Of a stretch of DNA of 64,000 nt, positions 16,980 through 63,987 are shown piece after piece (position 1 is the stretch's first letter; every line of letters starts with the position of its first letter). The stretch covers positions 23,953,267 to 24,017,266 of the forward strand of contig CM077822.1 in the NCBI GenBank assembly GCA_039720395.1, given 5' to 3'. This DNA is from Liquidambar formosana (Eukaryota; Streptophyta; Magnoliopsida; Saxifragales; Altingiaceae). The notes under the pieces are model-generated. The model was not told where the DNA came from. It worked only from the letters and a program-made list of their open reading frames with translations, and searched no databases. The translations under genes and the position numbers were made by a program.

Positions 16980-17150
16980 TACGGTGATCTACATACAGAA
17001 AATTAAACAGAAAATCAGATTTCATTTTTAATCCATAATGATCGGGTCTTTAATCATATGGTACCTCCCACTATTTTATCAAATTCCATACACCCTCTAA
17101 TGGAATTCGGGAATCTCATTCCTAATGGGGATTGGGGTCCCACTGTGACC

Positions 17151-35126: not shown

Positions 35127-35297
35127 CTGCATATATAGAGAAAGAAAGCACACTTTATTGACTAGGAATAATGGGAATGACACACAAAAGAAAGAAGGAA
35201 AACAAACAAATCTGTATCAATACTATGACTCCACAAAGTGAGTAAAGTAGATACATCTTTTTGAATTAGGGAAATATTACTAAACTAAGACACCTAC
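35127..35297 (-). other. Predicted Ogre-type intron between protease and RT
   Basis: On the element strand a donor GTAGGT begins at 35297 and a pyrimidine-rich stretch ends at the acceptor TATATGCAG (35127). Splicing these 171 nt removes the stop TAG at 35294-35296 and joins the gag-protease frame to the RT frame without a shift. An intron at this place, controlling Gag versus Gag-Pol output, is a recognised trait of Ogre elements; here it is my prediction from sequence. Confidence 0.65.
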
Positions 35298-38200
35298 AAG
35301 CTGCTATCAGGTAGGCCAAGGTCTTCTTCTTCATGGATCTCCGCAATGACACCACATTCAAGGTACCAATTCAGGAATGGCACGGTAGCATGGCTAATGG
35401 ATGAACCCTGGAGTTCTTCAATGGTCGAGTCTTCCACGGTGAGGATCATGTCTTGGAACATTTCAGTCATAGCCCCCGCATCAAGGTTCTCTGCCCAGTC
35501 TTCTTCTTTCAAGCTTCCATATAGATCTTGGATAGAGTGGTACCAACTTGTCAAACTTTGAGGATTCGGCCCTTCTGTGAAGTATCTATCACCAAAACTT
35601 TTATCTGCCACGGCTGGGTCGGAACTTGGATAAAAAGTATATGGGATGTACTGCTTTATAGAAGAGTAATGGCGTGATGATTCATTCAGCTCTTTCTCAA
35701 TGCATTGGACATAATCAAACCCAGATAGCGGTATCGCTGCTGATTCAGGTTGTATCTCACATATAGGCACACCTGCGAGTTTCAATTCATAGTCCCCTTG
35801 AAGTGTTACTATGGCTCCTTCATAAGGAAACTTCACCTTTTGATGGAGTGAAGATGGCACAGCCCCAGCAGGATGGATCCAAGGTCGGCCCAACAGCAAG
35901 TTGAAACATGACGGCACATCCAACACTTGGAATTCTACCCTAAATTCAGTGGGTCCCATGATAAGAGGCAAAGTAACTACCCCTATTACTTCTCGGCAGG
36001 TGTTGTCATAAGCTCTTACGGTCTGCCCAGATGGCGTGAAATCAGTGGGTCCCAAACCCAAAACAGTGGCAGTTCAGAGAGGACATACATTCAGTGCGGA
36101 CCCATTGTCGATAAGAACGGTGGGAACCCTCTTCCCCATAGTGTCAACGGTCACATAGAGAGCTTGAGAATGGCTCGGCCTGCTTTTAGGTAGGTCTACA
36201 TCGGTGAACACGATGGTTGAGTTCTTGGGAGTTGGATTCACCAAATGTACCAATCCCTCGGGGGATGTGTCAACAGGCACTTGTATCTGATTCAACAGTT
36301 TCAACACGGTCTGTCTATGCTTATGCGAGGCCATGAGCAAGCCCCAAATAGTAATGTTGGCATTGGTCTTCTTTAGCTGCCTAAGCACTTCATCCTCTTC
36401 TTCTTGCAAGCTAGGACGCCTCTGCCCTTCCAAATCTTCCAACGGATTTTCAGATTCTAGGTGGGGGGGCTTGAAATGACGACCCCCTCTGGTTATATGG
36501 TCCAACTCATCATCGCTAGCCCATATGTCATGGACTTCCTCGGAGTCATTCATCAAGTCATCCCATTCTATCATGTCGATGCTCTCCATCTCTGTCGGCA
36601 AGTCATCCCAGCCTGAAGGGACTATCGGCTCATCTGATATCAGACTTGGGCTTGAGTACAGCACATAGTAATCATATTTCCCCGACGCTTCACCTAATAG
36701 GCCAACCTGAGGATCCCCTGCTTCATATCTTTCTTTCAGCTCTTTTTGGATAGATTTCTTTGGTAGCAACAAAACTTTTTGGTCAATGAGGTCTTGGATG
36801 ATCTTCTTTAGTATAGAACAAGCCTCGGTGTCATGGCCGGGTGCACGATGGTATTGGCAATATTGGTGAGGGGTTGATGGTCTTGGCTTTGGTGGAAGTG
36901 GCATGATAAGGCTGTTATTGCGGCAAATGGTGAAGAGACGGGTTAAGGTCATGGGGAGCGGAGTGTATTGTCTTATGGGATGGCGAGGGCGAGAGGATTC
37001 AACCCCAATGGCATTTATGGTGTTAGGTGGGGGTGTGTTGTTGTGTGATGGGAGAGGATTACGGGTGACATTTGGACGGGTTGGTGGTGAAATGATTTGC
37101 TTGTCAATGAGGTCTTGGACTTGGTGGCGAAGGCGAATACAGCGATTGGTGGCATGGCCTTTGGATTGGTGGTACTTGCAGTACTCATTCTCATTGTAGC
37201 TCTTGGGTAAGGGATTTGGTGGAGGTCTTGGGTCGAGTGGCTTCAATAGGTCACGACTTATGAGCTTTTCAAGGACTCTTTCGAGTGGCATGAATAGGTC
37301 AGTGAATTGGCGAGGTGGGTTGACATCATTGAGAGAAAAGGGTTGGATTGGTTGAGTTATGGTGTTGACCTTGGCATTGTTCTTCCCAGTAAAGTTTGTC
37401 TTGCGACTCCTCACTTCCTCAGTCTTGATTGTCCCATCATTGATAGCATCTTCAACCTGCGTGCCAGCCCCAATGAGAGCTTTGAAATTTGGGAAATAGT
37501 GGGCAAATAGGTGCTTGTGATACACGGGCAGCAGGTTCTTAACCACTAACTGAATTTGGTCCTCCTCATTCGGCCTATCCGTCATTCTCGACGCCTTTTG
37601 TCTCCACCTTGTAATGTAAGCGGAGAAAGTTTCATAAGCCCCTTGCTTGGTAGTTTCTAGGTCCCTTCGAGTAACGTCCACCTCTGTGTTATACTTGTAG
37701 TGCTCTGAAAACTCATTGCATATGTCTTCCCAAGTCCGGGTTCTATTCTCATCCAAGGATAAGAACCATTTCAAAGCAGAAGTGGCCAAGGTTTCATGGA
37801 ACATTTGAGCTAAAAGCTAATCAGTAGCCCCTCGAGGGTGCATAGCTCGCACGTACATCTTCAAATGAGTCTTAGGGCAACCTGTCCCATCGAACTTTTC
37901 TAACTCCGGCATCTTGAATTGTAGTGGAATACGAGCCGTTGGAAACAGGGATAGAGTCCGCACATCGACCATGTCATCAGCCCTGCGAATCCCTTTTATG
38001 GTTCTCTCCAAAGCTTCTACCTTGCTAGCTAACACGGAATCACTGCTAGTACCTTTCCCCTTGGCTTCCCCTTCTAGGTTGGTGACCTCAGGTTTCGAGC
38101 TACTTTCCCCCCTTGTCTTGGTGTTCTCATTGGATTGAGGTCCCTCTTCGGTGCCAGCCCCATGAGGTATACCCGAGGAATGGGCCTTAGAGCCATTTTG

Positions 38201-38347
38201 TTCAAGATCCGCTATCTTCTGTTGGTTCTCTTGAGCCATTTTCAATGCGGTATCGGATGTCTCGGCGGTATGGTCAAGCTTGGCCATGATGGCTTTCAAG
38301 CAAGCCTCAAGGTCAAAGTGCCCCTCACTAGTTCTTTCGTCGGCCAT
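35298..38347 (-). pseudogene. gag-pro: Element B gag-protease with two in-frame stops
   Basis: The frame starts at ATG 38347 (MADERTSEGHF); the frame above it is also open to 38413 and conserved with element A. The parts are an acidic, variable N-terminal region, a Retrotrans_gag domain (around 37580-37860), knuckle-like CKYHQSKGHATNRC and CQYHRAPGHDTEAC (both C-X2-H-X4-H-X4-C), then a retropepsin-like segment whose active-site motif reads VLIDNGSALNVC (36080-36115) and continues with the flap/core lines LLLGRPWIHPAGAVPS. Stops are TAG at 37817-37819 within gag and TGA at 36074-36076 just after the protease motif, the latter fitting a CGA to TGA change. Both neighbouring pieces remain in one frame, and the natural end is at the predicted intron. 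Confidence 0.88.
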
Positions 38348-39202
38348 GTCTGTCTGATGGGTAGACTCAACACTCACTAGACGCCCTTGTGGATTGCGGA
38401 TCCAAGCCAGCACGTCTATGGATAGAAAAGTTTTAACCTTTAGCCTAAGGATCTGTCCTAAACCTCCATATTTTCCTTAATGAATTCGGTCTCTACACCA
38501 TGTTCAATTAATTCATTCCTTTTATCCAATTACCTTTACAGGGGTCATGGGTTAAGGGTATGTTTTAAAGAATAGGGCATAGAGTCCTTCAACTAGGTTT
38601 AATTAATCCCCTAGGACTAGCACATCACAAACATAGCTTTACATCCTATTTCCTTAATTTATTCTTCCTAACCCATGGCCTTAACGAAGGCTAGGGTTTA
38701 AAGGTCTATATTAAGGGCATAAGATATGAAGCCTCACACCATAAACACAGCATAGCATCATTACAAACAATTGTGGGTGCATAAAGGTGAGACCGTAGTG
38801 TCCTACAAGTCTGTCTATATGGACTAATGATAAGGGTAGGCTAGGGTCCTTCACTTGCTTGAGCAATCCTTATACCTAACCACATGTGGCATCAGGAACG
38901 CCGCGTGGGTCCAGCAGTACGTGATTAACTCATTTAATATACCCAAGGGCAAGCCCAAGGGTACTAGGCAAGAGAGGTTGATAGCTTTCGCCCCAACACA
39001 TGGAATCAGGAAAACCAAGGTTGAGACTAGGCCGATCGTTGGCAAGGATACATCGAGGGACATCGATCCTAACATGCAAGAGTTTGCGCACACAATGCAA
39101 TAAATGAAAGCACACAATCAAGCGGATGCAATGTGATTGATTTTAATTAAACATAAGAAATTAACCTAGCCCAATTAAACTTTATAGAGTCTAGCCCACA
39201 AG
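38348..39202 (-). other. Element B leader between PBS and gag
   Basis: Noncoding; the half next to the PBS is almost the same as in element A (2244-2597). No upstream extra ORF of the classic Ogre type is visible. Confidence 0.6.
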
Positions 39203-46711: not shown

Positions 46712-46811
46712 NNNNNNNNNNNNNNNNNNNNNNNNNNNNNNNNNNNNNNNNNNNNNNNNNNNNNNNNNNNNNNNNNNNNNNNNNNNNNNNNNNNNNNNNN
46801 NNNNNNNNNNN
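46712..46811. other. Assembly gap, exactly 100 N
   Basis: One hundred N bases, the usual placeholder for a gap of unknown size. The left side is LTR D, the right side unrelated DNA. Confidence 0.98.
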
Positions 46812-48605
46812 ATGGGTAACAAAACCCAAATCCGAAAAAATGGGGATGCAAACTAGGGGTGCTCACGGGTGGGTGGGCCGGGTAGGCCGAGTTCATCCCA
46901 ACCCACCCATAGTCATGGGTGACTAAATTCTCACCTACATCCGCCCATATGATTTGGCGGGTTTAACCCACAAACCATGGATTGGTGGGTGGTTGGCGGG
47001 CAGATTTGCGGATTTAATTTTTGTTTAATGAAATCATCGAGTTTGTCCAAACCATATCAACGGGTTAGGTCAATTGGATCTAACAATGTTTATTTTCTTC
47101 TAAAATTATTGTAAGGAGAAAAGAGGAGGATCATAATCTGGCAAACTGATAAATTAAAAGTTCGAATTCCCAAATACATATATTTGAAACCCGAGTTGAT
47201 AGCTTAATGGCTGATACAGTTGAGATTATTGTACGTGGAATGAATAATCATTTTGTATAGCATCCTGAGTAATAGGCTTAACTGATACCATCCATAATGG
47301 GTCAAGTCATTCAAATTGATCTTAAGCGATTATGAAATTGTTGGGAAGTCCTGCTTCCTACTTGATTAAATGTTAAGTTTATATAACTTAATATTTGTTT
47401 GAATCCTCCACCTACATCAGCAATGCTGGGGTGGTAGCCCCAATAATTCTTTCCATCCTTAATCCTTTGTTCTCCTTCATTTTGAACCCACATAGCTGAT
47501 GTCAGCACATGCTCCTCTCACACGCTTCTCCTCTTTCTCTTTCTTTTCTTTCTAGCAAGAACCACTCTCTCTTTCCTGCTCTTCCACTCATTTTAAATTG
47601 AAAATCACTCATTTCACACAAAAGTCTGAGAGTGGTGGGGATTTCATTTGCTCTGAGTGTGAGTGGTGATGGTAAAAAAAATAAAAAAAATAAATATATA
47701 TCATATTGAGTGATTTTACTAATCTATTGGATTAATTCGATTTCTAATCATATTGTTTAACAGCAGTGGTGAAATGTTCTTAAGAGGAAAAGGCATTTTC
47801 AATCATTTAGCGTAAAATTATTTAAACGAATGATCTTTGAGGACATAATTTACACTTAGCGCCACTCATTATTTCACGGGTCCTTAATAAGTTTTCATAA
47901 AGGTGGCTTGGAAGGGCGCATAAAGAGGAAGCAAATGATCTACCACATTCAGCTTCAGCTATATATGACTTTGTAACACTGATCGCTAGTTCGATCTAAC
48001 ATTCGTGTGAGGGGACCTAACCAATTACCCATAGTTCGGCCTAAGCGAAAGTATTAACTAGTAGTCATTGTTAGTTAAGTTAATAGTTTTTATCGAATTG
48101 AAGTCAATAAAATTTTGTATTGAACTGTAATCATTTTTCCAATAGTCCGAGGAATCTAGAATTCCCCCCCCTCCCCCAACCCCAAAACAATAAAAGAAAA
48201 AAAATGTTTGGATATGTACAACCTTGGCCAATCATATAGAATCTACTAATAGATGAATGTCTACGAGTCCAAAATACTGACTAATTGTACTCTACTGTCT
48301 TTCTCCTCTGTCTATGATCAGATTTGAAACACTCTATACAAAATTTGCTCTAAAATTAAAGTGTTGTACTGTCTTTTTTCTCTCCTAATCATAGTAATAC
48401 AAACAAGTTATTCAGTGATGTCAATCCCTTTGCTCTGAGTGCCTGCGTGAGACTCATAAATTATTTCATCTCATAAAATATGAAAGGGATATTTTTTTTA
48501 ATATATATCAACAAAAGAGGGGTGTAAGCAAAATCGTTAGGATCAGAACAGGAGGTGTCCTCTTTTCTCCAAAAAAAAGCACGCGTGTGCAGCTACATTC
48601 ATCTA
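46812..48605. other. Unassigned AT-rich DNA with a G-rich transposon-like start
   Basis: 46848-46990 (TAGGGGTGCTCACGGGTGGG, then more GGGTGG/GGCGGG and complementary CCCACCC lines) resembles the ends of plant hAT elements, but I found no matching opposite end. At 47339, TGTTGGGAAGTCCTGCTTCC looks like the start of a copia-type LTR with a possible TATA near 47382, yet no end, PBS or coding region is clear. No gene is seen. Confidence 0.3.
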
Positions 48606-49100
48606 CCACGTTAACGTGGGTGATCAACGTGGGTGAAAACACCGCTGGATTTGCATTTGCCTACCCAAAAAGGCACCGGGCATAGCCTTTTTCACTTAGC
48701 GCCAACGCTCCCGCGTTTAACTACGCACCAAAAATACAAAACAGTCAAAAAAAAAACAAAAAAAAAACACCCACATAAACGAAACACACACACACACCTG
48801 CTCTTTGTCCAGGCTCTCTCTGTCTCTCTGACACACACACACACACCTGCTCTTTCTCCACGTCTCGTCTTTCTCTCTTCTTTCCACTCTCACACACAAG
48901 CCCTAAATCATCTCTTCTCTCTCTCTCACTCCGATTATTATCTCTATATCTCTCTCTCTCTCAATCTCACACCGAAGCCCTACATTTACAGCCCATTCAT
49001 TTGATTGCTGCCGCTGCTACAGTTTCGAGAGAAGGGCACGCTCTATCCAGCGGACTATCCTGATGCTAGGGAGCTGCGATTCAGACACCCCATTTAAGTA
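48606..49100 (+). promoter_or_regulatory. Possible promoter and 5' leader of an unidentified transcription unit
   Basis: A perfect 14-bp dyad CCACGTTAACGTGG (48606-48619) and a nearby AACGTGGGTG contain ACGT cores of the G-box/ABRE kind. 48779-48975 is CT/CA-rich like plant core-promoter and 5'UTR DNA, with near-identical repeats ACACACACACCTGCTCTTT at about 48784 and 48835. GC content rises at 49005-49085, and a splice-donor-like TTTAAGTAATTTTG follows near 49094. No convincing coding exon follows, so this could be a noncoding RNA, a promoter remnant or chance. Confidence 0.3.
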
Positions 49101-51696
49101 ATTTTGTTTTTTTGGAAGTGGGTTTTTGTTTTGAGGGTTTCTGGTTCAAAATCGCATATAAAATTTGGGGTTTTTGGAGTTGAAAATCGGAAGAACATAG
49201 GCACTTGCTTAATCGCCAGGTAATCTCACCAGCTTAATCGCCATGTTTCTTGTGTATCTACAATAAACAGGCCCACTCTCTTTTATTATAGTGTTAGATA
49301 TAAGTATTATTAACTATGGATAGGTATATGATTATGGAAAAAAAAAAATCCTCTGATGGCAAAAAAACTTTGGATGCAGATGAGCAAGGGAAGAAATCGA
49401 GAAAGAAGGGGGGGGGGGTTTGCATCACCGTGTTATTTTGTGGCCAAAAAAAAAAAAAAAAAAAAAAAACACCAAAGCTACTTAGCTTCCTCTATTAGAA
49501 TTAGAAGAACATAGGCACTTACTCATCTAGGGGGTATTGATAAATTGGAAGCAAAAAAACGTTGGGAAATTGGGAAGAGGCAGGAAAGATAGGGGTGGGA
49601 AACATAGGCGCGTGCTCATCTATACGTTGTGAACCTTTTCTTCTCACATTCTTTCCAAAAAAGTTAGTTGAATATTCGCAGAAAAAATATGTAGGAAAAT
49701 TTAAATTGTACGTTGAAAAAGTATGTGGCAAATGATTATTGAGTTTTGCTGGACAGGACATATATATGCAATGCATCTCCACCATCATAGCATTGTTCTA
49801 AATTGCAGCCCTTCATGAATATTGATCTTGACATAACTCAAAGACAGTCATCTCAGGTGATCTTGATCGATGCCTTTAGCTCATTGCCTCATTCATTCAA
49901 AGTTCATCTCTAAAATATAACATCCAAAGACTTGAATCATCTACTTTTTATTAATGTTTCCTAACACTTTCTAAATAAATTTTTTTGTGAACTGCTAGCT
50001 GACCTTATTGTTATTCTTCCTCGCTTGATTAATCACTTTGTAGAGCCTATTATATTTTGAACATATGATATAAGATTTTCTAAACCTGAAGTTATACATA
50101 AACAGTTTTTATTTTCAATCTTCAGTAGAGGTCATATCCATGTGGCTCTTAACGTGATAAGTTACGGCTTCTTCCAGCAAAAGGATGATCAAGAGGGTGA
50201 AATTTGATTGGTAATGTCCATATACCTTCTTCACCTTATTCTTGATATGTTTTATCAAAATGTTAAACTCATGTTTCGATGTTAACCTGCATATATCTAT
50301 AGGATTGCTTTCTCATACTTCAATGGAGCAGGCTTTGTCTTGATAGTTCATTCATTTTCAATCTCATGGACTGTGAAACCATTTCATCATGGTTCATAGT
50401 GATCAGTACCTCATTATAAGTTCTTTGGATTCCTTTTGAATAGTTATGTAATAACTTCATTTGCGTTTTAAACAGTTATGGTGTTTCCCTTACATAAATT
50501 ATGGAAGGGATCCCCTGTTGTCATATTAGATTCTCTACTTTATGCAGCTAACAATTGATGCATCAAAATATAGTTTGACCAAGTTATACATTGTTGATCC
50601 TTGTGAAAATATAGTTTGACCAAATTGAATTTTCGGTGTTTCATGTTAGGGGTTTATCTATTATCACATATCTCAAGTTCCACGAATTCATATATGTGAG
50701 GGGTTTATCTATTATCACATATCTATAGCATTTTTTTATTGTTTTGGTAATGGCTATTGCTTGTTCGCCGCATTTCAAAAGGCATGCATGCGATTTTTAA
50801 AGGCACAAAACTTTATGACTTCATAAATTTTATTTGGTTATGGAGATGTGTAGTACTGTAATTTTTTCTTTTTATTATGTTATTTTAACATATATAAATA
50901 AATAAATAACTTTGGGTTATAGTTTGTAGGCTGGATTCCTAGAAAGGCAATAGAAAACATTTTTAGGGAAAATGAGCAAGGTTGTAAATTAAGTTAACCG
51001 AATTGAATAGTAAGTTACTCAAATTTGCAATGATAAATTAATAAGTTTATTTTCTTTGAATAACCGAATTGAATAGTAGAAAACATCTTGTTTTGGTTTG
51101 TGTTATGAAAACCTATAACTTAGATTGATTAGATTGATAAGCTTGAACCAATTAAGTTACTCTAGCAGCCCCACAAATAAGTGAAAACCTATAACTGCTT
51201 AATTAACAAAGCAAAAAAGGTGGGGGAAGGGTGGGTGGAAAAGAAAAGAAGACTGTTACTTCCATACCTTTTAAAGAAAAATAAGTTTTAGGTGCCTAAT
51301 TATTGCATGAAAATATATATGGTTGGATCAGATTCATGAACCTCAAATGATTTTTGATTGGGGTCATGGGTGAAAACAATATTGTAAAATACTATTGGGT
51401 GAGCTGGAATAAATAATATTTTTAATTGTGACAGCAAGATTATCTACATATAGATGCTATTTAATATAATTTGTTTATAATATTATAAATAGCTGGCTAT
51501 AGAACAATGATGCTAGTTATAGTAACCAACAAGGCGCCCACACTTAGGCCAACTGCATTATAATTGCAGGTTTCACCTAGTTGTTTTTTTCAGCTACTTG
51601 GTGAGATTCTTGTGAGTGTCAATCACAATGTGGATTGTGACATTTCGTTACATATTAGAATATTAATGGCCTGGTTTTTGGTTCAAGGAGTTTAGG
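49101..51696. other. Noncoding AT-rich DNA with short repeats
   Basis: A run of A bases (49446-49470) and of G bases (49409-49418) are homopolymers prone to assembly error. AGGGGTTTATCTATTATCACATATCT occurs twice 51 bp apart (about 50648 and 50699), and AAAATATAGTTTGACCAA twice (about 50566 and 50607). Some lines (for example 50125-50205) look exon-like but I could not join them to a protein. Confidence 0.5.
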
Positions 51697-51704
51697 TAGT
51701 AACA

Positions 51705-51892
51705 AAGATGCCATCAAGCTAGGCTGGTTGGTAAGGGTGTGGGTGTCATACCCCATGCCTCAGTTTGAATCTTATCCCATAGGGTTATCCAATCCTATTA
51801 AGTATTAATCTATTAAATTTAGAATGATTGTAGATTATGTTTCTTACCGGTTTCAGAAAGGAAGAAAAAAAATAAAAAGGATGAGGCATAGA
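51705..51892 (+). mobile_element. Probable tRNA-derived SINE
   Basis: A box A-like CTGGTTGGTAAGG (51724-51736) and box B-like AGTTTGAATCT (51772-51782) are spaced as in tRNA genes and SINEs. An A-rich tail (51861-51880) follows, and an 8-bp direct repeat TAGTAACA flanks the unit (51697-51704 and 51893-51900). It does not fold as a complete tRNA gene by eye. It would be transcribed by RNA polymerase III and moved by a LINE. Confidence 0.5.
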
Positions 51893-53281
51893 TAGTAACA
51901 TGCTGAGCGATACTTGCTTTGTTTCACTATAGATTTAAGCAGCACATTTTCTTTCTAATGGAATGCATTCATTGTCAATATTTGAATCTTAAAGGGGCTC
52001 AAGTTGTCTTCAAAAACCTGTTTTTAATCCTTCAAAGGTGATAAGTTCAAATCATGACCTCTTCCAAAATGCCGTCCAAACCGAATAAAAGCTTGTGAAA
52101 GCTATGTTTTGATTTAAAACTGAACAAAAGAGATTATGGCCACTAACTAATCATCAATCAATTCCATTTTAGAACTCTATATAGCATTGCTCCCTAGAGA
52201 GTTTGCTTTTGTTGCCAAAATTCAAAAGTCGTTGTCTTTTTGCCACTCCGATCAACGGCACATTGATTAATTAGCCTACTAACCAACCACTTGTACATGT
52301 AATTCTATGAAGATGCATGATTTGATTGATCTTCATTTTCCACAATGGCGTTTTGTTTGTCTTAAGCCAGAAAATTTTGATGCTTTGGCAGGCAAAGGAA
52401 CCATTTCCTAAAGTGAATTCACGGGTTGTCTGCTTCTTAAGCAACCAAGCTTTTACTGGATTACAAACATTCGCCCAAGATTACCGCAATTATAAAGTGT
52501 GAAGTTCTCTGTAAAGTAATAGGGTTAAGGGTAAGAAAACATTCGATTAGGCACAAAATCAACTGCTTTTGCTTGAGCATATAATCAACTGCTTTTGCTT
52601 GAGCATATGACAGTCGATTCTCCCAATCAATAGACCATATTCTCCTAGTAATTGACTCTATTATTCTTCTTGTTATTGAGGTTTACACAATATTTCATTC
52701 ACATCTTTTGATTTTTGAGACAGTTATTGGTGGTATGCCCTTAAAACTTCTTGATTTGGAAACCACTTATATGTGTGCAGCTCCCAACCTTACATGACTC
52801 CCCTTTTTTATATCGGCGTCAAGTTTTGAACTCCTAGACTAGGCTACAAGACCCATGACCATTTGCCAACGTTTGATAACCATAGATAATAGATTTTATC
52901 TCTACATTCTATGTTTTTTTATCAACAAGGTCATAGTTGATCGCATGTCCTTGTATTACCAAAAATAGTGTAAGCAAAAGGAAAATGGCAAAGAAAAATA
53001 TTTAATAATATTCAACAAATTAGTGGTCTTAAATTGCAATTACTCTCAAATCTATAAGTTTTTTTTTTTTAAATTTTTAAATTTTTTTATTTTTTGTGAA
53101 TCAAATTAGGGAGACTTATTTCTACACTTTTTTTTTTTTTTTTTTTACTAATCCACACATTTTCATGGGTTTTTCCTATTCCACACTCCTCTATGGGTAA
53201 AACTTAAATATGGGCAATTGATTTCAGAGGCCAGGTGTGGATTAGGTAAAATTTAAATATCATGCATCTTGCATCATTGAC
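51893..53281. other. Noncoding AT-rich DNA
   Basis: A tandem duplication of ATCAACTGCTTTTGCTTGAG lies near 52559 and 52587 (28-bp period). A box B-like line GATAAGTTCAAATCATGACC near 52041 may be an old SINE fragment. Long T runs lie at 53060-53145. No gene is seen. Confidence 0.5.
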
Positions 53282-53462
53282 CAACCATGAACCATCATAG
53301 TGCATGAGACTTTTTGGGGGAGTGTGAATAGCACTATATATATCTATCTATATATATATATGATCAAATTCCTTGTGTGATGCATGCAACCATGAACCAT
53401 CATAGTGCATGAGACTTTTTGGGGGAGTGTGAATAGCACTATATATATATATATATATAAAT
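53282..53462. repeat. 105-bp direct duplication with AT microsatellites
   Basis: CAACCATGAACCATCATAGTG and the following 40 bp occur identically at 53282-53343 and 53387-53448, each copy running into a TA-rich microsatellite. Confidence 0.85.
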
Positions 53463-53669
53463 ATATGCCTTCCCTCTAAATCCCTCTCCTCTCCTTAACT
53501 ATGGGCCCACCAACGTCTATGACCCTACTTTTTAGCTGATGTATTTCATATTAAAATTTAAAAAACCACCTTTACCTAATATGAAATCAAAAAAATAAAA
53601 CTAAAAAAATAGGAGAATAGACCATTGATTGATTGATTGAAGAGGTGGAGATGAAAAGAGGAATAGGAC

Positions 53670-53696
53670 GGGGATGGGGATGGGGATGGGGATGGG
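53670..53696 (+). repeat. GGGGAT minisatellite, G-quadruplex motif
   Basis: Four GGGG tracts and a final GGG are each separated by AT. The regular spacing fits a stable G-quadruplex on the plus strand. Confidence 0.85.
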
Positions 53697-54222
53697 AGTA
53701 TTAGATTTCAAACCTCCCTCTTCCCTTTTCTCTCCCACATTTCATTCTCCTCTCATCTTCAAAATTTTTTTTCCCTCTTCCGTTTTTGATTTCGTTTAGC
53801 AAGTTCTTATTCCGTGTTTAATTTTAGCCAATTTCTTTAATTATTTTAGTTTACTTATTTTCACTCTCTTTTGTATAACAAGGTTTTCCTATTTTCAGCC
53901 CCTTCGAGTTGTTGTGTTGTAGAGCTTTCTGATATATTAATTTGGATATTATTATTATTAGTATTATTATTTTTATTATTATTATGTTGGGTAGCTTAAT
54001 TTGTTGCAAATGCCACGAAACATGGTGTAGGTTGAAGTGGGTATATATATATGTTTCCTTTTTTTTTTTTAGGTGCTATAAAGAAGTTGGGTATAGGTAA
54101 TAACCCTTAATTATCTAAGGCAAGCAATAAGAAGATGGACACAGACTGTTTTATAAGAAGGGATGCAGAGAGTTGAACCATACATAAAGACACGTTATCC
54201 TAAATTCTAAATCACTAAACTA

Positions 54223-54260
54223 GTATATATATAATATGCATCGCGCGGGTTTCTACTAGT
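54223..54260 (+). mobile_element. Possible Helitron 3' end
   Basis: ATGCATCGCGCGGGTTTCTACTAGT resembles plant Helitron 3' ends: the right arm of a GC hairpin, a short spacer, then CTAGT followed by AT-rich target. The left hairpin arm is not present and no 5' end (TC...) is identified, so this is tentative. Confidence 0.3.
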
Positions 54261-54262
54261 AT

Positions 54263-54651
54263 ATATATATAAATAAGAAGAAAACAGTTTATGTGAAAAT
54301 TTAGTTCGCTGTGAATTTTTTAAAGTAAAATCTTACTTAATCTCTTCTCGTTTCAATTTCAAAGATGTTATATTCAATCAAAAGATATCAAACCATTAAA
54401 TAATAATAATATTTATGAATCATAAAATTATTGAGTACCCTGATTTTAAACAAGACAATTTAGAAGTTATCACCCAAAAACGTAACACAAAATTAATATG
54501 CATTTATATTTAATAGATTCAAAAAATAAAAACCTATGCACAACTGGTATTCTATAATTAGTTCCAACACACTGCCTTAATGAAATAGTGTATTCAACAA
54601 ATCACTATAAGAACAATACCCTGATTTTATGCTGTTGTGTTCAATGTTAGG
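54263..54651. other. AT-rich DNA upstream of the CACTA transposase
   Basis: No gene is seen. TTCAATGTTAG just before the ATG at 54652 looks like an intron acceptor, so the transposase may have an untranslated upstream exon. CACTATAAGAACA at 54603 resembles a CACTA terminus but is very close to the ATG. Confidence 0.4.
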
Positions 54652-57600
54652 ATGCCGATAGATAAGAGTTGGATGTCCATTGCGGACAGGGGTAAACCAG
54701 AATGGCAACATGGGATGAAAGCATTTCTCGATATGGCGTTTGCAAATGTGGCATCGAGGAGCAATACGATTCGGTGTCCGTGTCGTCGGTGTGTTAATGT
54801 GATTCATAAGACACATGATCAAGTAAAAATGGATCTATTCAGGCATGGATTCGATCCGGATTACAAGATATGGACTTTTCATAGGGAGGATAGGGTCACT
54901 GAGTCATCTAATGATAATGTTGAGGGCGTAGACAATGAAACAAACGAAGAAAGATGTGATGATGCTCGTGCATATGAGATGATAAATAACATGATTAGAG
55001 GAGAGAACTTGGGTAGTACCACAATTGATGGAGATGACGATTTACATAGGCCTGACCGAGAGGAACCAAATGAGAATGCTAGCAAATTTTTTCGATTGTT
55101 ACGAGATGCTTAACAAAAGTTGTATCCTGGTTGTAAGAAGTTAACTAAGTTGTCATTTGTTGTTAGGTTGTTTCAACTTAAATGTTTATATGGGTGGAGT
55201 AACAAATCAGTTGATGGATTGCTTGAATTGTTTAGATTAGCACTTCCTGATGATCATGTGGTCCCTATTTCATTGTATGAGGCCAAAAAAATGATACGGG
55301 ATTTAGGACTTGATTATGAAAAGATTGATGCATGTGTAAATGATTGCATGTTGTATCGAAATGAGCATGCCACTTTGGAAAAATGTCCAATATGTAAGGA
55401 ACCTAGATGGTTGACAAGTTATGAAAATGCAGATAATGAGAGTGATGAAACTACTATTGGGAAAAAGAAGAAGAAAAAAATTTCTAGGAAGATCCTACGT
55501 TATTTTCCATTGGCGCCTCGACTATAAAGGTTGTACATGACAAAAAATATAGCTTCTGACATGAGATGGCATAAGGAGGGCCGTGTAAATGATGGGGTGA
55601 TGAGGCATCCAGCTGATTCTCCAGCATGGAAACGATTAGATGAGGTCCACTCTTGGTTTGCATTAGATTCTCGTAATGTTAGACTTGGCCTTGCAACTGA
55701 TGGGTTCAATCCATTTGGGCTTATGAGTGTTTCATACAGTACATGGCCTGTTATATTAATTCCATATAACTTACCGCCTTGGCTGTGTTTGAAACAGCCT
55801 TTTTGGATAATGTCCATGATTATACCTGGTCCTAAGTCCCCTGGAAATGACATTGACGTGTATCTACAGCCATTGATAGAAGAATTGAAACAGTTATGGA
55901 ACATGGCGTTGAGACATATGATGCCTCATTGGAACAAAATTTTCGTTTGCATGCTGCAATTTTATGGACAATTAATGATTTCCCAGCATATGCAGTATTA
56001 TCTGGATGGAGCACAAAAGGAAAACTCGCATGTCCAAGTTGCCATAAGGATACGTCGTCTTATAGACTCAAGTATGGACAAAAGGAGTGTTATTTGTGTC
56101 ATCGTCGATTTTTAAAATCGGATCATAAATGGCGGAAGAATAAAAGTTCATTTGATAATACTGTGGAAACAAGAAAGGCACCAAAACCATTATCAGGAGA
56201 TGAGGTGATCGAGCAATATGAAACTTTTGAGCAAGTGACCTTTGGTAAAATGACAAGGAAGAGAAAACGTGATCATGAGCTTAAATGGCATAATTGGCGA
56301 AAGAAGAGTATTTTTTTCGAATTACCATATTGGAGGACATTGTTAATTCGACATAATTTGGATGTGATGCACATAGTTAAAAATATTTGTGATAGTGTAT
56401 TGGGAATAATTCTTGCTATAGAAGGGAAGACAAAAGATGGCTTAAAATCTCGTCTTGATCTTCAAGCAATGGGGATAAGAAAAGATTTACATCCAATTCA
56501 TAGGGGTAGCAAATACACTATACCTCCTGCTTGTTATACATTAAACAGTGATGAAAAGCAGAACTTGTGCCAGTTTTTAAAAGATGTGAAGATGCCTGAT
56601 GCTTATGCATCAAATATAGGGTGATGTGTGCAGGTGAAGGAGTGCAAGTTGATTGGGTTGAAATCTCATGATTGTCATGTAATATTTCTACGTTTACTTC
56701 CACTTGTGATACGTGGATTGTTACCAAAGAATGTTTGTGAACCACTAATTGCTTTAAGCAGATTTTTTGCGGAGTTGTGTTCAAAGGAATTGCAGGTTGA
56801 AGAATTGGAAAGATTAGATCAGCAAATTCCAGAAATCCTCTGTAAATTGGAACAATTATTTCCACCTTCATTCTTTGATGTTATGATGCACTTACCGATT
56901 CACCTCGCAGATGAAGCTAAGGTGGCTGGTCCAGTGAACTATAGGTGGATGTATCCAGTTGAGAGATCTTTGCGCACGTATAAGGGGTATGTGCGTAACA
57001 AAGCTCGTCCAGAAGGGTCAATTGCTGAAGTATATATTTCAGAAGAATGCATGACATTTTGCTCTTGGGACTTAGATGACATGGAAACAAAATTGAATCG
57101 AGCAGAAAGGAATGTTGATTCTTATCGAAATGAAATGTTACCTGGTTTGAGCGTATTTGCACCGGTTAACCGTACCAAGCGCAACTATGCTTTTCAAAGT
57201 CTCAATAAGTCAGAGCTCTATATGGCACATCATTACATTCTAACCAACTGTGAGGAAGTCGCTCCATGGGTTGAGTAAGTCTATGCATTTATTTATTACA
57301 TATTAGAATTTGATTATTTGTATGTTATTATTACATCCTTAGAACCAATTTTAATGTAATTTTGTATATAGCGAACATATTAAAGAGCTTACAGAAACAA
57401 ACTCTCGAAATGTAGAGCAAAGACACAAGTAAAAATTTTCGGAATGGTTTAAGTCTCGAGTAAGTAAGTCCATACAGTAAAAGTGTTTCTCGTTGTGTTT
57501 CGTTTAAATGCCAAACTAATTGAATGTTTCATATTTTGACTTATCAATTGTAATGTAGGTCACACTTCTTTACAATAGTGGAGACGAACGGGTAAATGAT

Positions 57601-58371
57601 CAGATATTGGGGTTAGCTCAAGGGCTAGATGCTCGTGCACGAGTTTACACCCGCTACATCATCAATGGTTTCTTGTTTCGAACAAAAGAAGGGGAGCAGA
57701 GAAGGAAAACCCAAAATAGTGGCGTGGTTGTGAAGGGTGATGAACATACAGGCTATATCGATTGGTTTGGCATCATCAAGAGCATTATTGCTTTAGATTA
57801 TTTGGGAAGTAATGAAGTTGTTCTGTTTAAATGTGATTGGTTTGAGGTGCCACCACTAGAAAGGAACCAAAATAGAGGGTATAAAAAAGATGAATATGGG
57901 TTTATCAATTTTGATATGACACGCCTTCACTACAAGGATGACCTTTTCATTTTAGGGATTCAAGCCGAACAAGTTTATTATGCAAAGGATGTGAAAAAAC
58001 CAAATTGGGCAACTATGATAAGGGTGAAGCCTAGAAACCTCTTTTCTATGCCAAATATTGAGGAAGAGGTAGAAGATGAGACCAATCTTTTCGATGATGA
58101 GCCTTACCAATTGAATGAGATTCCAATCATTCAATATGATATGGGTGGTACCGAGGAAGGTTCCGAAGACCTGGTTGGATGGTGTAGAGGTGACATTGAG
58201 GGATTGAGTATTGATGCACATGATGTTGAGGCTATTGAGTTAGATGAAGACCACATTTCTGAAGATAGTGATACTGATCTTGAAGAGGATGATGATACAT
58301 ATGTTAATGATGGGTCAATGGAGCATTGTCTTGATGAAGATAGTGATGGCGACGAACAACCTATGCTATAA
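54652..58371 (+). pseudogene. TNPD-type CACTA transposase (Transposase_21 family) with stops and a frameshift
   Basis: This enzyme class cuts and joins CACTA ends. Order: transposase-associated domain from MPIDKSWMSIADRG with a Cys-rich site (CPCRRCVN), the Transposase_21 catalytic region (MRWHKEGRVNDGVMRHPADS, FNPFGLMSVSYSTWPV, GPKSPGNDIDVYLQPL, INDFPAYAVLSGWSTKG), a DUF4218-like region (MMHLPIHLADEAKVAGPVNYRWMYPVER) and a DUF4216-like region (YGFINFDMTRLHYKDDLFILGIQAEQVYY), then an acidic tail. Breaks: TAA 55111-55113, TAA 55525-55527, a one-base loss near 55896, TGA 56622-56624 and TAA 57430-57432. The frame is continuous across each stop. Predicted introns are 57275-57371 and 57460-57558, both GT-AG. 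Start chosen at 54652, where the family normally begins; an ATG at 54637 is in frame. Confidence 0.9.
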
Positions 58372-58637
58372 TAACTTCTTTTTTCTAATTATTATATTTT
58401 TGGAATTTGAATGCGATGTAATGACTTTATGCAATTAAATTTTTTAGGGGTTTCTTGTTTACTTATAGTATATGTTCCATTTTCAGAATTGTAATGTTTA
58501 GCATGAGGTATTTTGAGATTATTTGGAAGTAATGTAATATAATGCCTTTAATTGTGAAAATATTTTCTTGTTTGGGTAGTTGTTTTCATTCTCATTAATA
58601 TACTATAAACTTTTAAGTTCAGGTATCAACGTTCTAG

Positions 58638-61023
58638 ATGGCTTATCCATCATCTCAGTGACGTCGTACACCGAGGTTTTCTTCTCAGCCTTCTTCCATA
58701 CCATCTCAGCAACAAGAAGAACCATCTTCCTCACATCGGCAAGCTTCTCCTTCTATTGAGACATCACTGCCATTGCCTATTGTAGTTCCATCTTTGTCAC
58801 AATCGCAGCCACCATCACCATCAGTTCAGCCATCATCACAGTTAGCTCAGCCATCATCATCATCACCATCAGCTCAGCAATCATCACCATTATCCCAGCT
58901 ATCTGGAAATTCATCCATTGAACAACCTGTTTGCCAATTTCCATCTCATGCTCGTCGTCCACGTTCTGATCCATCAGGTTTAATCATTATTTATAGTATA
59001 TTATTACTCTTAACATTTTTATTAACATCATATCTGCTGTAGCATTTTATTTCCCGCCATTATAGTCATTATGAGCATCCTTTATTTAAATTAAATTTTC
59101 CCAATAGTGTATTAATTTTTTAATTTGTTGTTGGATAATGTTTAGATCCTTCAAATAACCCTAAAAAGGGTAGAGGCGCTGCAAAAGGATTGAAGGTTGC
59201 TAAGAGAGCTAAGGAGAGTAGTAATGGCAAATTGCCCATTGAGTTTTCAACACGGTTAGGTGGGCCAATCGGTATACATTACCGGGAATTTGTTGATGAA
59301 GTGGTAGTTCAAATGAGACGTCATGTGCCTCTTATTGGAGTGAATAAGTGGTCGGAAGTGTCACTTGATATAAGAAATACTATTAAGGATAAAGTTTTGG
59401 TATGTAAGTCTATACAATTGAATTTTTCCATCATCTTTTTAAAGTTCTAGATAACTTGAACTCATGCATCTTTGAATTCTATTGATCACCTGGCTGCTTC
59501 TGACATGGATGGTTTTGTGTCTTATGTAGTTTTATAGTAACTTTCTTTATCTTTAATGCATAATTCTCACTTGAGGGAGATGCTGATCAGAGTGCTTAGA
59601 CACCTCGTTTAAAGAACTTGTTTTAGGTGCCATGTGTCCAATGTAATTGGCACTTTGGTTAGAACATGATCTTTGTTGATTTTATGAATTAGTGAATTTT
59701 GGAACATGAAACTAGTGTTAAAGATACTTGTTTTTTTTTAACTTTATAAACCACATACCTCTAAATTGTTCAAAGGATTTGTTATGTGCAGGAGAGGTGG
59801 AGACTAGCAGATGACGACTTTGCTAGATCTAAGATTTTCAAAATCGCTCAAGAGAGGTATAGGGGTTGGAGGTCAACATTTTCAGCTACCTATAGAGCAT
59901 ATAAAGATAATAGAGAGACTCTCCTTCAAAATATCCCTGAGGAGCTTGACCTAGAAGAATGGGAGGAATTGATATCATATTTTGAAGGTCATGATTTTCA
60001 GGTAAAAGATCAACAAGGTTGTCTGAGTACAATATGGGTTTGTTTTTGTGAGGACCGGATTCATTTGCATATCAGTTTTTAAGTACTATTTGATTGCAAG
60101 ATTAGTCTATGTTTGTTTCTATTATTACATATAAGTTTTGAAATTGTTTGTGAGAATTTTATTTGTATTCGATATTATATATTGAATTATTTTTATGAAA
60201 GAGCCACTAAAGTGTGTGCCATGAAACATATCTTGTAGAGAATTAGTTCAAGAAATGCTGCTAATCGGAAAAAACAAGGGAGCAAGCACCATACGGGAAG
60301 CAAATCATTCTCCTAAGTTAGCTTCGAAAATGTAAGATTATCAATTTTCTATATATGTTATGCCAATACTTGTATTATAGTTATAACTAACAATATATAA
60401 TCCATTGTGGTTGTGTTTTGTTTTATATCATAGCGAGACAAAGATACACAGGAGGAGCCCGATGATTGCACATTGTGGGAGTTGGCCCATTATGTAGCTG
60501 GCAAATGGAGCGAGCACACATCACAGTGTATCTATGTAAGTATCACATTTATTTATTATTTATTTCTTCCTTATGTGAATTTAGAAGCTTCTTTGTTGTC
60601 TTTTTTAAAGATAGGTGGTCATATTTTTTCATATAGGACGAAGCTAAACAAAAGATTGCAGAGAAGGAAGCCGAAGAAGGTCGATCTTTGTCTAGTGATG
60701 AACGTAACAGGATATTCCAATCTGTTGTGGGTAAAAAATCAGGTTATGTTCGTGGACGGGGATACATGGCAAAGGCTCCTACTTCTGTAGAGCGTGTACG
60801 TGATGAGTTTAATGGTAAGCTTCAGCATTTAGAGAAACAATTGGAGGTAGAGCGTGCTGAGAGGGATAAAGAACAGGCTGAGAGGGATAAAGAACGAGTT
60901 GAGAAGGAGGCAGAACTTGTGAAAACACTTGAAGAAGAAAGTGCTAAGCGGGCTGTAGAAATAGAGCTTCTCCGACAGACTATGAGATAGGAGTTCATGC
61001 AAATGCTAGCCAATCAGAACTAG
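58638..61023 (+). pseudogene. Transposase_24/TNPA-like accessory gene of the CACTA element
   Basis: I predict six coding exons: 58638-58977, 59146-59399, 59792-60001, 60239-60331, 60434-60535 and 60637-61023. All have GT-AG borders and the joins from exon 3 onward are in phase. The N-terminus is Ser/Pro/Gln-rich and probably disordered. The middle (FSTRLGGPIGIHYREFVDEV, ERWRLADDDFARSKIFKIAQ, TLWELAHYVAGKWSEHTSQC) fits Transposase_24. The C-terminus (about 60800-60990) is a Glu/Lys/Arg-rich coiled coil. TNPA-like proteins bind subterminal repeats of their element. Stops are TGA 58659-58661, TAA 60314-60316 and TAG 60988-60990, each one C-to-T step from Arg or Gln codons. The last is near the natural end at 61021-61023. 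Confidence 0.82.
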
Positions 61024-62093
61024 GTATACCAAAATTTAATTTAATTTACTTTTGTTTCTTGATACTCTTTATAAATATGATAACTTTGATGGCTATAGAA
61101 TGCATAGCCAATAAGATGAATATGATATATGGGGGTACAAAATCGTTGATTTGATTTATATCTATCCTCTTTGAAACCTCTCTAATTACCAATCCGACCA
61201 TGACACATCCTAGTGCTTTGAAATTTACCATTATTCTGCTCGAAATGATGAGAAGAATCGATTTTATGCACAATCTGGCCTGTGTTTTCTTTAAATAACA
61301 GTGTAGGCTGGCCTGTATTCTATGAACAATGGGATAGAGTGTTGCGATTGGTAGTTGGAGGAACTATAAATAACCTGACCTTAAGGAATGTGTCAAGTAA
61401 GTTTGTGATTGGTTTCCAATATTTGTTTTCATAATTTTTTTTTTGGAAACTTTCTGGTAGCTATGTTGTTGGATAGTACCCAAGATTTTTAAGAGCCCAT
61501 TGGAAGTTCTTGAAACTATTGTGAATAAGTCATTTTCTTTTATGCATGAAACACATTTAGGAGTCCAGGTTATTTTTATGCTCTGATATTTTATTTTTAA
61601 ATCTTTGTAGGATTGTGATGTGCCAAAATATCTGTACAATAGAGTGATTTCTTTCCCCCTAGGCTTTCTGTATTGGGTTGTGGAGTTGAAGCATAGAATG
61701 CATTTGTTGTTTGTGATGGGTGCATTTTGGTCTTTGTTTCAATGACAAAATATTTGATTTAGAATCGTGTTTTGTTTATGCTTGTTGTCATAATATATCT
61801 GAAAGTGGGCTTTAGTTCTAATTCTTCCTTGCATTGAATTAAGTGTTGTATTTTTTGACACCGGAAGTCACAAGCTTGGAGGTGGAGGAGGTTGCAGGAG
61901 ATAGATAGTTAGTATAAAGCCTTTAGTCACAATTTCATGAACATAAATCCTGTAGCCAATAAAGGATTACTATTGCTGAACTTATGTATGTTTTATATAT
62001 TATCAAGTATTTTTTCCAAATTTTCTTTTTATAGATTTATTTTCCTAACATATCCATATCGCTAGAACCAAAATTTAAAAACTGTTTTTCAGA
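61024..62093. other. Noncoding DNA after the CACTA genes
   Basis: AT-rich, no supported gene. The 91-codon minus ORF at 61364-61639 has no recognisable family and looks like chance. Confidence 0.5.
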
Positions 62094-62097
62094 TCCC

Positions 62098-62407
62098 GGA
62101 TCGATCCGAGTTTATGCCGGATCGATCTGGGTTGATAGAACCAAAATTTGCATTTCTAGAGCAGTATGGATCGATCCACATATGTCATGGATCGATCCAC
62201 CTAGGCAGAAGCAAAATTTGCATTTCTAGAGCAGTATGGATCGATCCACATATGTCATGGATCGATCCATCTAGGCAGAAGCAAAATTTGCATTTTTAAA
62301 ATACCATGGATCGATCCCCAGAGGCTATGGATCCATCCACAGAGGCAGAAGCAAAATTGCTATTCTAAAATACCACGGATCGATCCTCCGACTCCACGGA
62401 TCGATCC
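62098..62407. repeat. Array of ten GGATCGATCC palindromes in five pairs
   Basis: Palindrome starts are 62098/62119, 62168/62189, 62238/62259, 62308/62329 and 62377/62398. Within each pair the offset is 21 bp without exception, and pairs repeat every 70 bp (last interval 69). Eight copies are perfect; 62119 ends in T and 62329 has one internal change. The spacer AGGCAGAAGCAAAATTTGCATTT between pairs is less conserved. Position 3' of two CACTA transposase genes suggests protein-binding repeats. Confidence 0.92.
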
Positions 62408-63393
62408 TCTATAATTTGACTATGGTTATACTGGTTTTTCTTGCTTTAAATATGCTTGCATCAACTGTTTCTGTGGATGGTTCTATATTTTGTCTTTCGT
62501 TTTCTTATATTTGGTAGATTGGTACATTAAAAAATGATATAGTGAAACTTTTTGATAGTATTGAAAAATATGGTATGTCTTCTTTTTTTTTTTGGGAAAA
62601 GACATTCTATGTATTTTGATATTCTTCTTTTATTCTATAACTTGTGGGTTTTTGTGCTCTTTTCTTTGTTATTATAATTTACCTCTTGAGCTGCTACTTG
62701 AATTTTTTAAGTCACTGAATTAGTTTTTTTTTTTTTTTTTTCCTACTTGCATATGTATTTTAGAATTGCCATGCATTTAATAGATCATGAAGACATGAAT
62801 GAGGCCCACTTTTGATAACTATGCCTAGCTAAGACCTTGTAATATATTGATTGATCGTTTCCTTTTTACATAGGCTTGGAAAGTTATGATCATATTTCTA
62901 GTACCCTGAACTACATTATTGATAGTAGTAGAAGCTTCTTTCATTGTAGAAGGGATGATGATCATTCAAGATGCTTTCTAGTTCGTAGTCTTATCACTTA
63001 AATGCTTTCCATGAACTTCTAACAGTTTTTCTTTGGTTCTTCTTAAATACTAGTATACTTCTAAATCTTGTAAAACCTAACTTATTCACAAAGGAAGAAT
63101 TTATCCAGCTTATGGGTTTCGAATAGGTTGATTCATTGACCTAACTAGACAATTCGTATGATGTATGATTGGTGAAATATAAAAAATAAAATAAAATAAA
63201 ACTGGAGATATTGTCATTTTCCCAAGTCCAATATAAAATGGGTTTGGATCTGAATCTTAAATTGATAGCAGTTGCCATATGCAATTCATTGAGGAAATAT
63301 CATTGTCTGAATATTTGATTCTCTTTTAGTTAGTCTCTCTCTCTTACTTTCTAATTTTCTTTGTTTCTTTGCAATGTTTTACAGGAGTAGATT
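62408..63393. other. Noncoding AT-rich DNA
   Basis: No gene is seen. T runs lie at 62582-62592 and 62726-62742. Confidence 0.5.
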
Positions 63394-63576
63394 GTTGCTA
63401 ATCAGCTGGAATTTCCTGCATTTTGGATGCTTAGTATCTTTGGAGTAAATGGTTGCTAATTAGCTGGAATTTTTGCATTTTGGATGCTTTTTGGATGCTT
63501 AGTATCTTTAGAGTAAATGGTTGCTAATTAGCTGGAATTTTTGCATTTTGGATGCTTTTAGTATCTTTGCTGATTT
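63394..63576. repeat. Three tandem copies of a 58-68 bp unit
   Basis: Units starting GTTGCTAAT(C/T)AGCTGGAATTT at 63394, 63452 and 63520 include TGCATTTTGGATGC and TTAGTATCTTT. The second copy is longer by a 10-bp internal duplication. Confidence 0.88.
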
Positions 63577-63609
63577 ACTTCAAAATTTGTAATGACATTT
63601 TAGAAGGTT

Positions 63610-63658
63610 GAAGCTTGAAGCTTGAAGCTTGAAGCTTGAAGCTTGAAGCTTGAAGCTT
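63610..63658. repeat. Seven copies of GAAGCTT with partial copies downstream
   Basis: A perfect 7-bp tandem array in which every unit contains the palindrome AAGCTT. Degenerate repeats follow to 63740, interleaved with four copies of ATTTGTAATGACATTTTGGA (about 63585, 63661, 63711 and 63799). Confidence 0.92.
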
Positions 63659-63932
63659 TAATTTGTAATGACATTTTGGAAAAGGTTAAAGCTTAAAGCT
63701 TGAAGCTTTAATTTGTAATGACATTTTGGAAAAGGTTAAAACTTGAAGCTTTTAATATAGTGATATGGATACTTTAATATCTTTGTTGATTTATTTTCAA
63801 TTTGTAATGACATTTTGGATGGCTTCATTAGTTAAATGAATGTTTAAAGTTTGGGTTTGAATCAATTTGGATAAGTTTGGGATTGAGATATCATATTTTG
63901 GATGGTTTCATTACCTTTAATAGGGTATAAGT

Positions 63933-63987
63933 CACACTTGACACCTAAGTTTATAATTAGGTCGGACACACTTGACACCTAAGTTTA
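63933..63987. repeat. Direct repeat at the right edge
   Basis: CACACTTGACACCTAAGTTT starts at 63933 and again at 63967 (34-bp period), near the window end. Confidence 0.85.

What the first reader, a model, noticed from the sequence alone, without database searches (positions are those of the whole stretch)
62098..62407. Ten GGATCGATCC palindromes, paired at exactly 21 bp, repeated every 70 bp
Five pairs have the same 21-bp internal offset (two helical turns) while the spacer sequences vary, and two copies tolerate a base change. Fixed geometry with looser spacers suggests a dimeric DNA-binding protein contacting one face of the helix. The array sits 1.1 kb past a coiled-coil TNPA-like gene, and TNPA of En/Spm binds subterminal repeats of its own element.
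Basis: partly seen in the sequence, partly recalled or inferred. Interest (0 to 1): 0.75.

Follow-up and report, generated by a model that had tools for sequence, protein, structure and literature searches.

The report
Retrotransposon enhancer fragment inside CACTA transposon
The ten paired palindromes are real, but they appear to come from the control region of a Copia-type retrotransposon, where similar pairs sit just upstream of its promoter, and a piece of that region was picked up backwards by a CACTA DNA transposon.

Summary
In detail: ten GGATCGATCC-like sites (8 exact), five pairs at exactly 21 bp, pair starts 70, 70, 70 and 69 bp apart. The CACTA/TNPA reading does not. The window's 718-Mb plant genome holds 1,073 exact pairs (reversed control 0); all 50 listed have 11- or 12-nt spacers, although 5-20 nt was allowed. 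Of the 43 in loci I fetched, 30 lie in LTRs of a Copia-type retrotransposon family and 13 in CACTA copies. In 13 of 13 LTR copies examined the array ends 95-99 bp before a TATA-like box: probably a U3 promoter/enhancer. Across seven LTR subfamilies the ATCGAT cores are nearly invariant (34 of 36 columns; inner spacers 6 of 33). Flanking bases are dyad-complementary in 24 of 28 distinct sites (shuffles 9.3), and one subfamily has a whole pair rewritten to CAATCGATTG in register. That points to sites for a dimeric DNA-binding protein. The window array (62070-62407) is an antisense LTR piece without the TATA box, in a decayed CACTA element whose family's real subterminal repeats are TTGCAAC/GTTGCAA. 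Binder unidentified; function inside the CACTA unproven.

The parts
62070..62407 (-). LTR-derived fragment, antisense to the TNPA-like gene; matches stretches within about 256-547 of the cut LTR pieces, upstream of their TATA-like box
   Evidence: blastn of 13 LTR copies against the window: 11 match, only here, minus strand, up to 90% identity; L018a and L029a give no match at E 1e-5; tree nests it within one LTR clade, 100/100
62098..62128 (.). palindrome pair 1 (second site ends in T)
62168..62198 (.). palindrome pair 2
62238..62268 (.). palindrome pair 3
62308..62338 (.). palindrome pair 4 (second site GGATCCATCC)
62377..62407 (.). palindrome pair 5
54625..58371 (+). broken tnp2/TNPD-like reading frames of the CACTA element
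   Evidence: Pfam Transpos_assoc, Transposase_21, DUF4218, DUF4216
58638..61023 (+). TNPA-like gene, six predicted exons, three in-frame stops
   Evidence: splice-consistent model made by eye, Pfam Transposase_24 E 9.9e-17
46812..63933 (+). stretch shared at 97.4% with CACTA copy A; the window copy departs from copies A and B at about 63,933, before the true 3' terminus; whether all of it is CACTA was not shown

Best explanation
The array is the U3 upstream promoter/enhancer of a Copia-type LTR retrotransposon family: three or four units of about 70 bp, each with two dyad-symmetric ATCGAT-centred sites 21-22 bp (two helical turns) apart, ending 95-99 bp before the TATA-like box. I infer that a homodimeric host DNA-binding protein sits on each site, two dimers per unit on the same DNA face, and activates LTR transcription. 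A roughly 375-bp piece of such an LTR, with array and without TATA box, was captured in antisense downstream of the TNPA-like gene of a CACTA element and has since been copied with it. The window holds such a copy (338 bp remaining, five pairs) in a decayed element. Shown: homology, orientation, position relative to the TATA-like box, constraint and dyad covariation in LTRs. Inferred: enhancer activity, dimer binding, identity of the binder, direction and number of captures, and any function within the CACTA.
For: 1,073 exact pairs genome-wide, control 0; 50 of 50 listed have spacer 11 or 12. LTR pairs 98.8-99.8% identical in L015-L018, with PBS-like TGGTATCAGAG after the 5' LTR and a purine tract before the 3' LTR, Copia gag, Pol_BBD in L027. 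TATA-like box 95-99 bp after the last palindrome start in 13 of 13 LTR copies examined (one LTR each of L015-L018; the script's first match in L027, at 36 bp, replaced by eye). Seven subfamily representatives: ATCGAT core columns invariant 34 of 36, all palindrome columns 45 of 60, inner spacer 6 of 33, outer spacer 17 of 77. Flanking bases dyad-complementary in 43 of 47 sites against 18.9 expected, and in 24 of 28 distinct sites, of three types (AT 11, TA 7, CG 6), shuffle mean 9.3, 0 of 20,000 reach it. L018 and L029 have a CAATCGATTG pair in register, 21 then 49 bp. CACTA arrays are antisense to LTR arrays with flanks included, 91% over about 375 bp in L021, and nest in one LTR clade at 100/100. 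Window copy, copy A and L021-L023 share the same left junction.
Against: No expression, binding or reporter data. Transcription start and the U3/R border were not determined; the TATA-like match was loose (TATATA, TATAAA, TATGTA or TTAAATA). Sites within an array are related by duplication, so covariation counts are not independent events. Positions 1/10 of the site, taken alone, do not covary beyond chance (21 of 28 against 18.6). L018a against L027 shows no significant excess of palindrome conservation (p 0.12), nor does CACTA L021 against LTR L024 (p 0.13). CACTA rows form one group in only 7% and 4% of 200 bootstrap trees, so a single capture is not shown by the tree. In CACTA copies the flank symmetry is weaker (13 of 23 against 8.7 expected).
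Confidence: 0.77

Rival explanations
1. One reading: binding sites of the CACTA element's own TNPA-like protein, at its subterminal region.
For: Array lies 1.1 kb past a TNPA-like gene and is present in the CACTA copies fetched (chosen through the array). Between the window copy and L021 palindromes are slightly better kept than spacers: 58 of 60 against 95 of 110, p 0.025.
Against: Same array in unrelated Copia-type LTRs. True subterminal repeats are another motif, TTGCAAC/GTTGCAA, next to the terminus CTGTAGTG. Flank symmetry is weaker in CACTA copies than in LTRs.
Confidence: 0.04
2. Selection acts on RNA: each pair folds as a 10-12 bp stem with a 9-11 nt loop.
For: Array RNA folds far better than shuffles, z -8.5. 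Each of the five pairs folds as a hairpin, pair 4 with a mismatch, and pair 1 keeps pairing through G.U.
Against: Good folding follows automatically from repeated palindromes. A hairpin needs only a and b to match, not each site to be its own reverse complement, yet symmetry is kept within single sites. The array lies upstream of the predicted start of the LTR transcript, although the 3' LTR copy of U3 would be transcribed. I did not test the two kinds of pairing against each other.
Confidence: 0.07
3. Neutral minisatellite: geometry kept only because units were duplicated.
For: Pairs 2 and 3 of the window are near-identical duplicates; unit number varies between LTR subfamilies.
Against: Between LTR clades spacers are 40-46% identical while palindromes are 83-97% identical (Fisher p 3.6e-8 to 1.5e-13 in the five between-clade pairs tested). 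In the window CpG is kept in palindromes (array O/E 0.93, 0.14 with palindromes removed). Symmetric base changes at the dyad.
Confidence: 0.08
4. Reverse direction: the LTR family took the array from a CACTA element.
For: CACTA rows do not form one clade in the short-fragment trees, so the exact branching is open.
Against: Both deep LTR clades carry the array at nearly the same distance from the TATA-like box, while CACTA copies sit inside one of them and have only a truncated piece without the TATA-like box.
Confidence: 0.04

Closest known systems
Tnt1 U3 BII boxes (tobacco Copia retrotransposon)
   Same: Repeated protein-binding boxes in a Copia LTR promoter; BII boxes bind defence-induced factors (PMC3316501, passages read). 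That they are tandem enhancer repeats in U3 is recalled.
   Different: Here each unit has two full dyad-symmetric sites 21-22 bp apart, with symmetric changes between subfamilies; sequence unrelated as far as recalled.
ONSEN heat-responsive LTR elements and Tto1 13-bp repeats (recalled)
   Same: Clustered transcription-factor sites in plant LTRs driving the element.
   Different: Binder and inducing signal unknown here; site is ATCGAT-centred.
VANDAL21 YAGTATTAY arrays bound by VANC21 (PMC5735166, passages read)
   Same: Short motif multiplied by tandem repeat formation in noncoding and intron parts of a TE.
   Different: VANC is encoded by the same element; here no element-encoded binder is indicated and the motif belongs to an LTR.
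CACTA subterminal repeats bound by TNPA (PMC2613891, passages read)
   Same: Host element is a CACTA element with TNPA-like gene; the repeats can form stem-loops.
   Different: In the soybean element they lie within 159 and 732 bp of the ends; here that place is taken by TTGCAAC repeats, and the GGATCGATCC array lies about 2.7 kb inside in copy A.

Membership tests
CACTA (En/Spm) DNA transposon, host of the window array | tnp2 transposase and TNPA-like gene | tested here: met
   Transposase_21, Transpos_assoc, DUF4218, DUF4216; Transposase_24
CACTA (En/Spm) DNA transposon, host of the window array | CACTA terminal inverted repeats and 3-bp target duplication | tested here: inconclusive
   3' terminus CTGTAGTG in copies A and B and 133 genome matches to that end with up to 3 mismatches; no 5' terminus located, so inverted repeat and target duplication were not shown; window copy is cut
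TNPA-bound subterminal repeat | close to the element ends | tested here: not met
   about 2.7 kb from the 3' end in copy A and 2.5 kb in copy B, inside of about 1.1 kb of other repeats
TNPA-bound subterminal repeat | binding by the element's TNPA | not testable with these tools
   needs EMSA or DAP-seq
Copia-type LTR retrotransposon (donor of the fragment) | paired LTRs TG...CA, PBS, polypurine tract | tested here: met
   L015-L018 LTR pairs, PBS-like and purine tract, TSD AAAGA in L015 read by eye
Copia-type LTR retrotransposon (donor of the fragment) | Copia gag | tested here: met
   Retrotran_gag_2 in L015 and L027
Copia-type LTR retrotransposon (donor of the fragment) | pol with integrase and reverse transcriptase | tested here: inconclusive
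   Pol_BBD in L027 at the end of the stretch held; integrase and reverse transcriptase not seen in what was scanned; L015 shows no long frame after gag
LTR U3 enhancer repeats | repeated, upstream of the LTR TATA box | tested here: met
   95-99 bp before a TATA-like box in 13 of 13 LTR copies examined
LTR U3 enhancer repeats | enhancer activity | not testable with these tools
   needs reporter assay
Satellite DNA | long head-to-tail arrays | tested here: not met
   2-5 GGATCGATCC pairs per array in the loci fetched

The most novel reading that the evidence does not exclude
A dimeric plant protein recognises dyad-symmetric NNATCGATNN sites in pairs two helical turns apart, and retrotransposon subfamilies have rewritten both half-sites in step (GGATCGATCC to CAATCGATTG, with T-A, A-T and C-G flanks). 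The CACTA element captured the module without its TATA box and uses it as its own regulatory or anti-silencing element.
Probability: 0.15. Interest if true: 0.75.

Novelty: new variant of a known kind. Interest (0 to 1): 0.48.

Why it matters
It gives a compact, testable cis-regulatory module: paired palindromes at fixed helical spacing, a nearly fixed distance to the TATA-like box, and natural subfamily variants that change both half-sites together. That makes the binding protein findable by DNA pull-down. It also documents movement of an LTR upstream piece without its TATA box between two unrelated transposon classes, and warns that a palindrome array beside a CACTA regulator gene need not belong to the CACTA system.

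Tried and rejected
TNPA subterminal sites: rejected after the true 3' end and its repeats were found. Chance: rejected. Whole solo LTR in the CACTA: rejected for the copies seen, because only about 375 bp of a roughly 1.1-kb LTR is present in L021. TIR/TSD search inside the window alone gave no credible pair. Scans of viral contigs found no relatives. A genome-contig scan found five bacterial or archaeal loci with GGATCGATCC minisatellites that look unrelated. Paper searches for the motif (one search held 63 papers and listed 20) and for palindromic U3 repeats listed nothing whose title or abstract start describes this array. Two things were not settled: the share of all 133 CACTA ends that carry the array, and how common CAATCGATTG pairs are genome-wide.

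Full report
Observation. Eight are exact. Whole-window shuffles give on average 0.86 matches at up to one mismatch; the window has 12. Comparing units 1, 2, 4 and 5 (unit 3 left out because it nearly equals unit 2), 18 of 20 palindrome columns are invariant against 4 of 39 spacer columns, aligned without gaps. CpG observed/expected is 0.93 over the array, 0.14 with palindromes removed, and 0.25-0.31 in the flanks.

Surroundings. Upstream lies a decayed CACTA element: tnp2 domains in broken frames, then a TNPA-like gene with a six-exon model made by eye that matches Transposase_24 and 11 proteins, named ones from Fagus and grasses or sedges. It has three in-frame stops.

Genome. After several busy answers, searched the window's own assembly (717,955,123 bases, 370 contigs; window at C3:23953267-24017266). 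GGATCGATCC pairs with 5-20 nt between occur 1,073 times on each strand, control 0. The listing shows 50 places, all on C1 up to 42.2 Mb, and all 50 have 11 or 12 nt between (counted by eye). I fetched the loci of 43 of these 50; the other 7 were not fetched.

CACTA copies. Copy A (L011/L012) matches the window at 97-98%; copy B (L013/L014) at 97.7% over 7.5 kb and 91% over the last 1.8 kb; both hold the array, though B lacks unit 1. Both continue past window position 63,933, where the window copy departs, into about 1.1 kb of TTGCAAC/GTTGCAA repeats and end in CTGTAGTG, after which their flanks differ. No 5' terminus was found. Search with the 3' end, up to 3 mismatches, gives 133 matches, control 0. 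L021-L023 are more distant copies (82-91% in the parts compared) with four units. All five came in through the array. As a less biased look: of the six ends listed on C1 before 42.25 Mb (0-1 mismatch), five have listed exact pairs within about 6 kb and one (33,356,675) has none (compared by eye).

LTR copies. Thirty of the 43 pairs lie in L015-L020 and L024-L029. L015-L018 have two LTRs of about 1.1 kb, 98.8-99.8% identical, followed by TGGTATCAGAG and preceded by a purine tract at the 3' LTR, with Copia gag in L015. L027 has gag and Pol_BBD. The other loci were assigned by 0.7-1.2 kb similarity to these LTRs. In 13 of 13 LTR copies examined (one LTR each of L015-L018, two different ones of L029) a TATA-like box begins 95-99 bp after the last palindrome start; in L027 the script picked an earlier AT-rich match at 36 bp and I take the TATAAATAG at 98 bp.

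Homology and direction. The CACTA arrays match the LTR arrays in reverse orientation including flanks: L021 at 91% over about 375 bp, with clear breakpoints, and the window at 62070-62407 (11 of 13 LTR copies match; L018a and L029a do not at E 1e-5). The TATA-like box is outside the fragment. In trees of the shared part the CACTA rows fall inside one of two LTR clades (100/100), but they form one group in only 4-7% of bootstrap trees (copy B was dropped from the second tree because its array is truncated). The window copy, copy A and L021-L023 share the left junction, which favours one capture. The simplest history is LTR to CACTA.

Constraint and symmetry in LTRs. In seven subfamily representatives (70-91% identical) the core columns are invariant 34 of 36, inner spacers 6 of 33, outer 17 of 77, and a 24-column tail after the array 16 of 24. 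Leaving out L018a the figures are 35 of 36, 7 of 33, 19 of 77 and 16 of 24. The base before and the base after the 10-mer are complementary in 24 of 28 distinct sites, as A-T, T-A or C-G; shuffles average 9.3 and none of 20,000 reach it; positions 1/10 alone show no excess (21 against 18.6) and positions 2/9 a small one (28 against 24.3). L018 and L029 hold a pair CAATCGATTG/CAATCGATTG exactly in register. Counting only sites with a partner at 21 or 22 bp, in 18 CACTA and LTR loci, 73 of 83 within-pair offsets are 21 and 10 are 22, and 58 of 60 between-pair offsets are 48 or 49. This is what sites for a symmetric dimer at helical spacing look like; that a protein binds is inferred.

Inside the CACTA. 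Between the window copy and L021, palindromes differ at 2 of 60 and spacers at 15 of 110 (p 0.025), and flank symmetry is 13 of 23 against 8.7 expected. This is weak evidence for continued use; a passenger fragment is as likely.

Host. The genome is a plant; most places listed are on 16 contigs. Named gag relatives include Juglans and Carya at 33-37% identity, too far to name the species.

Literature. Passages on Tnt1 BII boxes (PMC3316501), CACTA subterminal repeats (PMC2613891; PMC8195511), VANC motif arrays (PMC5735166), the outline and abstract of PMC10398659 and passages of a review (PMC10794571) were seen; no other paper was opened and none was read whole. ONSEN and Tto1 details are recalled. 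From memory only, ATCGAT-centred palindromes also recur in other plant genomes; no call tests this.

Noticed in passing
L018 and L029 (LTRs; positions 250/271 and 257/278 of the cut LTR pieces): One LTR subfamily has both palindromes of a unit changed to CAATCGATTG, in exact register with the neighbouring GGATCGATCC pairs.
   Followed up: partly
L001, L002, L004, L005: Apparently unrelated bacterial minisatellites with GGATCGATCC at 21-bp steps (an uncultured delta proteobacterium) or 24-bp steps (Treponema).
   Followed up: partly
window 13320-16988 (-): A long uninterrupted Copia-type reading frame of 1,222 codons, judged by eye from its translation.
   Followed up: no
window 31808-38476 (-): Long reading frames that look, by eye, like a Ty3/Gypsy retrotransposon.
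   Followed up: no
L010 5340-6737, just past the window end: A tandem array of about 160-bp units follows where the CACTA copy is cut.
   Followed up: no
P0029 and P0078: Copia gag relatives filed under Bartonella and Bacillus coagulans, possibly plant DNA in bacterial assemblies.
   Followed up: no
window 46712-46811: A run of 100 N (assembly gap) directly before the stretch shared with CACTA copy A begins.
   Followed up: no
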